Positions 18,646-20,667 of a stretch of 32,942 nt of DNA are shown piece after piece. Where the stretch lies: positions 1 through 32,942 of the forward strand of contig JAIFMD010000188.1 in NCBI GenBank assembly GCA_020048755.1, given 5' to 3'. Below the pieces are notes generated by a model. It searched no databases. It was not told the origin of the DNA and saw only the letters and a list, made by a program, of their open reading frames with translations. This DNA comes from Spirochaetota bacterium. Lineage in GTDB: Bacteria; Spirochaetota; Spirochaetia; Treponematales; UBA12059. The position numbers were made by a program, and so were the translations under genes. Position 1 is the first letter of the stretch, and each line of letters starts with the position of its first letter.

Positions 18646-20004
18646 TTACTCATTTTCCTTGAACAAGTCCACGAAGGCGACCTTCTTGCCCTTCTTCGTC
18701 TTGACCTTTTTCTCAAGATCGGCGAGGAGCTTGTCTTCCTTGACCCTGTCCTTGAGGTAATCGATCATGCCACGTCGTTCGTATTCCGCCTTGACTTCTT
18801 CAGCCGAGAGGCTGGAGTCGGAAGCCATCTTGGCATACTCTGCCGCGATATCGTCATCCGAGGCCTCATATTTGCCTTCCTCGACGAGCTTGTCCATAAC
18901 GAGGCGGGTCTTGATGGCCTTTTCAGCTTCGGGGCGCCATTCTTCACGAAGCTGGTCTATCGACCGGCCGCTCATGCTGACGATCTGCGTGAGTTTTTCC
19001 TCGTTCTCGATACCCATGCGCTGCATGAGGTTGCGGAGGCGCATCTCGAGTTCTGCGGCTATCATCGAGGCGGGGATATCAACTGTGGATTTTTCGACGA
19101 GCACATCGATGATGGCCTTCTCGCGGAGGGTGCGGAGGCGGTCTTCAAGACGTTTCTCGAGCTTTGTCTTTATGTCGGCCTTGAGGTCGTCCAGAGTCTT
19201 GAATTTCTCCGATACATCCTGGGCCAGTTCATCATCCAGAGCCGGTAGCTTCTTTTCCTTGAGCTTGGACAGCTTTACCTTGATTTTCTTGGTGAGGCCG
19301 GCAAATTCAGCGTATTCAAAGTCGGCGGGGAACGTCTTGTCAAAGATTTTTTCGTCACCCTTCTTCATGCCCAGTACTTCATCATCGAACTTGTAGAGGT
19401 TGTGGCCCGTGCCAATTTCAAAGACAAAGTCCTGGCGTTCAGAACCTTCCAGAAGGGCGCCGGAAGCATCGAGTTCCGAATAGTCGACAGTGGCAATGTC
19501 GCCTTTCTTTGCGGCCGACTTGTCGTCCTTGTCCATGACAATGGCGTTGCGCTCCCGGATCTCGTCCATCTCCCGTTCTTCATCGGCTTTCGCTACCGCG
19601 ACCTGGGGCAGTTCGATTTCCTCACCATCGAGAGAACCAGCAACAACCTCGGGGAAGACGTCATAGGAAACAGAGAAGGAAAAGTCGGAATCGAGTTCGA
19701 AACGAGGCTCTCCATCCAGCGAGGGTTGCGCGTACGAGAGCGGAACAAGGGTTTCTCCCTCGAGGGCCTTCTCTACAGCCTCGTCCATTACACGGCCCAT
19801 GGCGTCGAGCTTGAGCTGGGAGCCAAACTTGCGCTCCAGGATGGTCGCCGGAACCTTGCCCTTGCGGAAACCGTCTATGCGGACATTCTTTGAATAATCC
19901 CTGACAATTGCCTCGTACGCGGCGCGGACATCGTCCTTGCCTACGGTTACGGTGAGTTTGACGGCTGAATGCTCGAGTTTTTCGAAGTTCTTTGTAACGA
20001 CCAC
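18646..20004 (-). CDS. tig: Trigger factor, ribosome-associated chaperone and prolyl isomerase
   Basis: A 452-residue chaperone that meets nascent chains at the ribosome. The N-terminal ribosome-binding domain contains GFRKGKVP (family signature GFRxGKxP) near residue 45; the PPIase (FKBP-like) domain spans about 150-250, with GDIATVDYS near its start, and the C-terminal helical arms follow. The GTG at 20004 is taken as the start: AAGGGG is 7 bases upstream and translation begins directly at [10 protein letters not shown]. The frame is open upstream to 20190 but would run through a terminator and into a tRNA. A hairpin with a GNRA-type loop sits in the leader. Confidence 0.93.
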
Positions 20005-20026
20005 GTGTCTACCCCTTCTCGATGGC

Positions 20027-20042
20027 GGTTCCTCGCGGAACC
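20027..20042 (-). promoter_or_regulatory. Hairpin in the tig leader
   Basis: A perfect 6-bp stem GGTTCC/GGAACC closes a GCGA loop when read as minus-strand RNA (a GNRA tetraloop). It ends 22 bases before the tig start codon. No T-tract follows, so it is not a terminator; it may affect mRNA stability or ribosome access. Confidence 0.4.
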
Positions 20043-20103
20043 ACAAACTTGCGTATACGGAAAGCGCCCCGGATACGATGAGGGTATCGGAGGCGTTATC
20101 AAC

Positions 20104-20139
20104 AAAAAAAAAGGCGATCCGGGTTTTCTCCGGACCGCC
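20104..20139 (-). terminator. Rho-independent terminator after the tRNA cluster
   Basis: On the minus strand, a 10-position stem (GGCGGTCCGG with GCCGGATCGCC-type partner, one A-C mismatch) encloses a 7-base loop, followed by nine T residues. It separates the tRNA genes from tig. Confidence 0.9.
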
Positions 20140-20148
20140 TTCGCATCG

Positions 20149-20215
20149 AGCGGGAAACGGGAGTCGGACCCGCGACATCCACCTTGGCAAGGTGGCGCTC
20201 TACCACTGAGCTATT
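20149..20215 (-). pseudogene. tRNA-Gly(GCC) lacking its 5' acceptor strand
   Basis: From the D stem onward this is a normal tRNA-Gly: TAGCTCAGTGGTAGAGC, anticodon loop TTGCCAA (GCC), T loop, and acceptor 3' strand TTCCCGC plus a T discriminator, with no encoded CCA. The matching 5' strand GCGGGAA should precede it, but only the last AA is there. The five missing bases and any spacer are replaced directly by the truncated tRNA-Leu. As written it cannot form an acceptor stem or an RNase P cleavage site. This is either a real deletion or an assembly error. Confidence 0.85.
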
Positions 20216-20288
20216 AGGGACTTGAACCCTCACGCCGCAAGGCACCAGATCCTAAGTCTGGCGTGTCTGCCAATTCCACCACTCTCGC
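20216..20288 (-). pseudogene. tRNA-Leu(TAG) lacking its 3' end
   Basis: Class II tRNA with 5' strand GCGAGAG, D arm, anticodon loop CTTAGGA (TAG), a variable arm with a 3-bp stem (GCC-TTGC-GGC) and T arm GAGGG-TTCAAGT-CCCT. The sequence then switches to tRNA-Gly: the last base of the T stem, the 3' acceptor strand (expected CTCTCGC) and the discriminator are missing. The acceptor stem cannot form, so this copy should be inactive if the sequence is right. Confidence 0.85.
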
Positions 20289-20309: not shown

Positions 20310-20339
20310 ACCATAACTGAAATCGGCAAACCCTGTCAA
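20310..20339 (-). promoter_or_regulatory. Promoter for the tRNA-Leu/Gly pair
   Basis: On the minus strand, a consensus TTGACA (20339-20334), an 18-base spacer and TATGGT (20315-20310), placed 22 bases before the tRNA-Leu 5' end. Confidence 0.65.
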
Positions 20340-20381: not shown

Positions 20382-20454
20382 TGAGCCGTGCAGGGATCGA
20401 ACCTGCGACCCGCAGATTAAGAGTCTGCTGCTCTACCAGCTGAGCTAACGGCCC
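20382..20454 (-). tRNA. tRNA-Lys(CTT)
   Basis: A complete 73-base cloverleaf. Acceptor GGGCCGT pairs with ACGGCTC (one G-T), discriminator A, anticodon loop CTCTTAA giving CTT, T arm GCAGG-TTCGATC-CCTGC. CCA is not encoded, so the nucleotidyltransferase at 25699-27054 would be needed. Confidence 0.95.
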
Positions 20455-20483: not shown

Positions 20484-20557
20484 TGCGTCCGGAGGGAGTC
20501 GAACCCCCGACCTACGGATTCGAAGTCCGTCGCTCTATCCAGCTGAGCTACGAACGC
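20484..20557 (-). tRNA. tRNA-Arg(TCG)
   Basis: A complete 74-base cloverleaf. Acceptor GCGTTCG pairs with CGGACGC (one T-G), discriminator A, anticodon stem ACGGA/TCCGT around loop CTTCGAA (TCG). CCA is not encoded. Confidence 0.95.
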
Positions 20558-20594
20558 CCGTCGCCGATCGGTCTCACGCCGGCCGATAAGCTAG

Positions 20595-20667
20595 GGTGAG
20601 TGACGGGGTTCGAACCCGCGACATCCAGATCCACATTCTGGGACTCTACCGCTGAGCTACACCCACC
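20595..20667 (-). tRNA. tRNA-His(GTG)
   Basis: A complete 73-base gene that includes the extra 5' G opposite discriminator C typical of tRNA-His. Acceptor GTGGGTG pairs with CACTCAC, and the anticodon loop is ATGTGGA (GTG). CCA is not encoded. Confidence 0.95.

What the first reader, a model, noticed from the sequence alone, without database searches (positions are those of the whole stretch)
20149..20288. tRNA-Leu(TAG) and tRNA-Gly(GCC) fused by a deletion
The tRNA-Leu runs normally to the last base but one of its T stem. The next base belongs to tRNA-Gly just inside its acceptor stem. The Leu 3' acceptor strand and discriminator, any spacer, and five bases of the Gly 5' strand are absent. 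Neither tRNA can form its acceptor stem, although the upstream promoter and downstream terminator are intact. A GCC glycine tRNA is normally indispensable, so another copy must exist or the sequence is wrong here. A genuine fusion transcript would be unusual.
Basis: seen in the sequence. Interest (0 to 1): 0.65.

Follow-up and report, generated by a model that had tools for sequence, protein, structure and literature searches.

The report
Tandem tRNA pair, probably misassembled
Two neighbouring bacterial tRNA genes appear fused because a block of about 57 bases is missing between them; every relative examined has both genes whole, and the contig comes from a fragmentary metagenome assembly that often breaks at tRNA genes, so this is most likely a local assembly error and otherwise a recent strain-level deletion, not a new kind of tRNA.

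Summary
On the minus strand, tRNA-Leu(TAG) (20288-20216) stops one base short of the end of its T stem and is joined bluntly to tRNA-Gly(GCC) (20215-20149), which lacks its first five bases. Promoter, terminator and the Lys/Arg/His tRNAs upstream are intact. In relatives the same locus is His-Arg-Lys-Leu-Gly-tig with both tRNAs whole; the stretch missing here is 54-58 bp there. The fused form occurs in 1 of 394 genomes of the order (this one) and in none of the other collections scanned. The window is a contig of a 65%-complete, 234-contig metagenome bin. Eight of its 31 tRNAs lie within 100 bp of a contig end (0.9 expected), and two contigs break on one tRNA-Ala. Both remnants are undecayed, no protein gene of the contig shows a comparable deletion, and the lost Leu(TAG) is the only such gene in the congeners checked although CUA codons are in use. 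Best reading: a local assembly or scaffolding error at a tandem tRNA pair. A genuine recent deletion is not excluded: the junction shows no microhomology, no reads could be inspected, and a third of the genome is missing. A functional fusion tRNA has no support.

The parts
20310..20339 (-). sigma-70-like promoter of the Leu-Gly pair (TTGACA-18-TATGGT)
   Evidence: TTGACA conserved at the same place in relatives
20216..20288 (-). tRNA-Leu(TAG) remnant: 73 nt, lacking last T-stem base, 3' acceptor strand and discriminator
   Evidence: not called by ARAGORN
20215..20216 (-). blunt junction where 54-58 bp present in relatives are missing
20149..20215 (-). tRNA-Gly(GCC) remnant: 67 nt, lacking first five bases GCGGG of the acceptor stem
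20110..20142 (-). intrinsic terminator downstream of tRNA-Gly
   Evidence: conserved in relatives
20382..20454 (-). intact tRNA-Lys(CTT) upstream
20484..20557 (-). intact tRNA-Arg(TCG) upstream
20594..20666 (-). intact tRNA-His(GTG) upstream

Best explanation
A local assembly (join or scaffolding) error in a metagenome-assembled genome. The organism most likely carries, as its relatives do, an ordinary His-Arg-Lys-Leu(TAG)-Gly(GCC)-tig tRNA cluster with about 57 bp more at the junction. The tandem Leu and Gly genes are almost identical between congeneric species, while the spacer between them differs. Such a place is ambiguous for a short-read de Bruijn assembler, and here the two sides were joined without the middle. 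Shown: the junction, the intact state in relatives, the concentration of contig breaks at tRNAs, the undecayed remnants. Inferred: that no sequencing read spans the junction, and the precise step that produced the blunt join.
For: Intact locus in the 11 congeneric and family relatives whose junction was read; exact pattern of an intact pair in 19 of 23 family genomes. Fused form only in this genome out of 394 of the order; no hit in genome contigs or viral contigs. The genome is a 64.8%-complete, 234-contig bin. Eight of 31 tRNAs lie within 100 bp of a contig end, 0.9 expected, P about 2e-6. Contigs C224 and C185 end on the same tRNA-Ala with a 78-nt exact overlap, and other contig ends share exact 91-mers, as de Bruijn assemblers leave them (PMC10914622). 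A run of N shows that scaffolding was used. 24 protein genes of the contig align to G007 and/or G004 with no in-gene gap longer than 9 residues, so the damage is confined to the tRNA pair. Both remnants match the relatives' intact genes at 93-100% within the genus and family. No intact Leu(TAG) or Gly(GCC) elsewhere in the bin, and Leu(TAG) is single in the five congeners checked, while 21 CUA codons occur in 19 window genes including lon, clpX and tig. Chen et al. 2020 (PMC7111523) describe local assembly errors as a limitation of MAGs.
Against: The junction has no microhomology and its ends do not fall at the limits of the stretches shared between species, so a simple repeat collapse in a de Bruijn graph does not produce it; a blunt scaffold join or end trimming has to be assumed. 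The one N run seen shows that this assembler writes N at a gap at least sometimes. No reads were available. The contig is otherwise clean.
Confidence: 0.75

Rival explanations
1. A genuine, recent deletion of about 57 bp in this strain or population turned both tRNA genes into pseudogenes; intact Leu(TAG) and Gly(GCC) copies lie in the unassembled third of the genome, or the variant is a dying or minority strain.
For: Clean, blunt junction in an otherwise accurate contig. A second tRNA-Gly(GCC) gene exists in four of seven congeners, and the bin is only 65% complete.
Against: No second Leu(TAG) in the five congeners checked. Remnants, promoter and terminator show no decay. Not seen in any other genome. 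CUA and GGC/GGU codons are in full use.
Confidence: 0.2
2. A functional chimeric or bipartite tRNA: the fused transcript folds through the pairing CGAGCG...CGCTCG between the Leu leader and the Gly 3' end and serves as an unusual tRNA or regulatory RNA.
For: The two ends can pair in the predicted fold.
Against: Fold z-score only -1.9. The pairing segments are also present in relatives with intact genes, so they are incidental. Neither acceptor stem exists, and no homologue of the fusion was found.
Confidence: 0.02
3. A chimeric contig joining two different congeneric species at the tRNA cluster (a special form of assembly error).
For: tRNA genes are near-identical between congeners, a typical place for a chimeric join.
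Against: GC is 0.569 left and 0.570 right of the junction, mean GC3 0.64 and 0.66; gene order across the junction is that of G007, and protein identities to G007 are similar on both sides.
Confidence: 0.03

Closest known systems
Local assembly errors in metagenome-assembled genomes (Chen et al. 2020, PMC7111523)
   Same: Sequence wrong at a join in an uncurated MAG, disrupting otherwise conserved genes.
   Different: The defining test, absence of read support, could not be run; no N marks the join.
Tandem tRNA-Leu(UAG)/tRNA-Gly(GCC) pair upstream of tig in congeneric genomes
   Same: Same genes, order, promoter, terminator and flanking genes.
   Different: Here the 3' end of Leu, the spacer and the 5' end of Gly are missing.
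tRNA pseudogenes left by deletion (general knowledge)
   Same: Two truncated tRNA genes.
   Different: No decay, and no compensating copies demonstrated.

Membership tests
tRNA-Leu(UAG) gene | Complete acceptor stem and discriminator | tested here: not met
   TCTCTCGCA missing; not called by ARAGORN
tRNA-Leu(UAG) gene | D arm, TAG anticodon arm and long variable arm as in relatives | tested here: met
   93-100% identical to intact genes over query 1-81 in the genus and near family
tRNA-Gly(GCC) gene | Complete acceptor stem | tested here: not met
   GCGGG missing; Rfam match covers model positions 6-65 only
tRNA-Gly(GCC) gene | Remaining body identical to functional genes | tested here: met
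   100% over query 82-151 in many relatives
MAG local assembly error | No read supports the junction as written | not testable with these tools
   no reads available
MAG local assembly error | Located at sequence that is ambiguous for the assembler | tested here: met
   tRNA genes near-identical across congeners; contig breaks concentrated at tRNAs
Fixed tRNA deletion compensated by other copies | Intact Leu(TAG) and Gly(GCC) elsewhere in the genome | tested here: inconclusive
   none in the held 2.8 Mb, but the bin is 65% complete

The most novel reading that the evidence does not exclude
The junction is real and fixed: a bacterium lost the only tRNA-Leu(UAG) gene known in its genus together with one tRNA-Gly(GCC), and reads CUA by another route or with a relocated copy.
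Probability: 0.04. Interest if true: 0.5.

Novelty: not a real feature. Interest (0 to 1): 0.07.

Why it matters
Mainly as a caution: tandem tRNA genes conserved across co-occurring species are weak points of metagenome assemblies, and tRNA losses or fusions seen only in one fragmentary bin should not be read as biology without reads. If real, it would be a natural test of how CUA codons are read without tRNA-Leu(UAG).

Tried and rejected
Searches for the fused junction elsewhere (exact, and with a gap of up to 12-14 bases) in genome contigs, viral contigs and 394 genomes of the order found only the window. Searches for the missing halves elsewhere in the bin, allowing 3 mismatches, found nothing. 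A fold of the fused RNA was not convincing. The neighbourhood of the second tRNA-Gly copy of G003 was sought in the bin: scattered weak gene-level matches, no tRNA. I tried to derive the breakpoints from an assembler k-mer length (77 or 91): the contig-end overlaps of 91 and 78 are real, but the breakpoints do not follow cleanly from them, so I do not rely on it. A chimera of two species was tested by GC, GC3 and synteny and not supported. Two literature searches for tRNA-related breaks in MAGs and bacterial tRNA pseudogenes gave nothing closer.

Full report
What is there. On the minus strand the window carries His(GTG), Arg(TCG) and Lys(CTT) tRNA genes (20666-20382), then a promoter-like site (TTGACA-18-TATGGT, 20339-20310), then a tRNA-Leu(TAG) that runs from 20288 to 20216 and stops one base before the end of its T stem. 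The next base, 20215, is base 6 of a tRNA-Gly(GCC), which runs to 20149 and is followed by a terminator at 20142-20110. ARAGORN calls neither gene; Rfam calls the Gly remnant only.

What relatives have. The window is contig C97 of a genome held as G000 (64.81% complete, 0.72% contamination, 234 contigs). Congeneric and family genomes carry the same block with both tRNAs whole. Where this contig reads CCCT|AATAG, they read CCCT-TCTCTCGCA-spacer-GCGGG-AATAG, 54-58 bases more, in all 11 relatives whose junction was read. Blast of the window against G007 and G004 breaks at exactly 20215/20216 and is otherwise collinear there. The exact intact pattern was found in 19 of 23 family genomes; of the other four, one is this genome and three have slightly different sequence but match the pair over its full length with a normal gap. 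The fused pattern, allowing 0-14 bases between the halves, occurs in 1 of 394 genomes of the order, this one, and nowhere in genome contigs or viral contigs (records very near the window's genome may be left out of those two).

Could the organism live with it? Within the 2.8 Mb held there is no other Leu(TAG) or Gly(GCC), but a third of the genome is missing. Four of seven congeners have a second Gly(GCC). In five congeners the other leucine tRNAs examined are CAG, GAG and CAA, with no second TAG. CUA occurs 21 times in 19 genes of the window, among them lon, clpX, tig, rnc and yebC, and GGC/GGU are the main glycine codons. Losing both genes would therefore be costly unless copies exist in the missing part.

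Why an assembly error is most likely. First, the assembly is demonstrably weak at tRNA genes: eight of 31 tRNA matches lie within 100 bp of a contig end where 0.9 are expected (binomial P about 2e-6), two are cut by a contig end, and contigs C224 and C185 end on the same tRNA-Ala with a 78-base exact overlap. Three other pairs of contig ends share exactly 91 bases, the signature of de Bruijn contigs broken at ambiguous places (PMC10914622), and a 22-N run shows scaffolding. Second, the Leu and Gly genes are nearly identical between congeners while the spacer between them differs, which is the kind of place that is ambiguous in a mixed sample. Third, the remnants, promoter and terminator show no decay, and 24 protein genes of the contig align to relatives with no in-gene gap longer than 9 residues, so the defect is confined to the tandem pair. 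Published experience with MAG curation describes local errors of this general kind (PMC7111523).

What speaks against it. The junction has no microhomology (CCCT|TCTC... against ...GCGGG|AATAG), so it is not a plain repeat collapse; a blunt scaffold join or end trimming has to be assumed, and I could not tie the breakpoints to a k-mer length. No reads could be inspected. A genuine recent deletion in the sampled strain therefore keeps a probability of about 0.2.

A functional fusion. The fused RNA can fold with its ends paired, but with z = -1.9 (8 of 200 shuffles fold as well), and the pairing segments exist equally in relatives with intact genes. There is no homologue. I see no case for a functional chimeric tRNA.

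Verdict. Observation confirmed; most likely not a real biological feature; low interest unless reads confirm the junction.

Noticed in passing
L166 and L167 (G034:C1:1588000-1589600 and 1595900-1597500); L065 (G003:C85) 1805-2097: Downstream of some tRNA-Gly(GCC) genes in relatives lie tandem noncoding repeats, each carrying the last ~30 nt of the tRNA (GCGCGGGTCCGACTCCCGTTTCCCGC) and an inverted copy of its T arm (GCGGGAGTCGGAC), at ~107 or ~147 bp spacing: four further tail copies in L166, three in L167, one in L065, with a terminator-like stem in the units of L167 and L065. Resembles the tRNA-tail repeats of the E. coli tyrT operon (from memory). The inverted T-arm motif alone follows the second Gly gene in L066, L067 and L068.
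   Followed up: partly
window 20149-20215 and Gly(GCC) genes of relatives: The T loop of tRNA-Gly(GCC) reads TCCGACT, i.e. C at position 55 where T (pseudouridine) is nearly universal; the same in both gene copies of the relatives read.
   Followed up: no
L085 (G000:C4) 723-744: A 22-N scaffold gap is followed by A/G-rich low-complexity sequence unlike the flanking DNA, possibly a wrong scaffold join.
   Followed up: no
L065 1355-1809: Five copies of an 89-bp GC-rich tandem repeat rich in GCGATCGC lie just beyond the tRNA-Gly tail repeats.
   Followed up: no
window 18646-20190: The 514-aa ORF for tig in the mechanical list starts inside the tRNA-Gly remnant; alignment to relatives supports the 453 residues from about 20007 onward.
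   Followed up: yes
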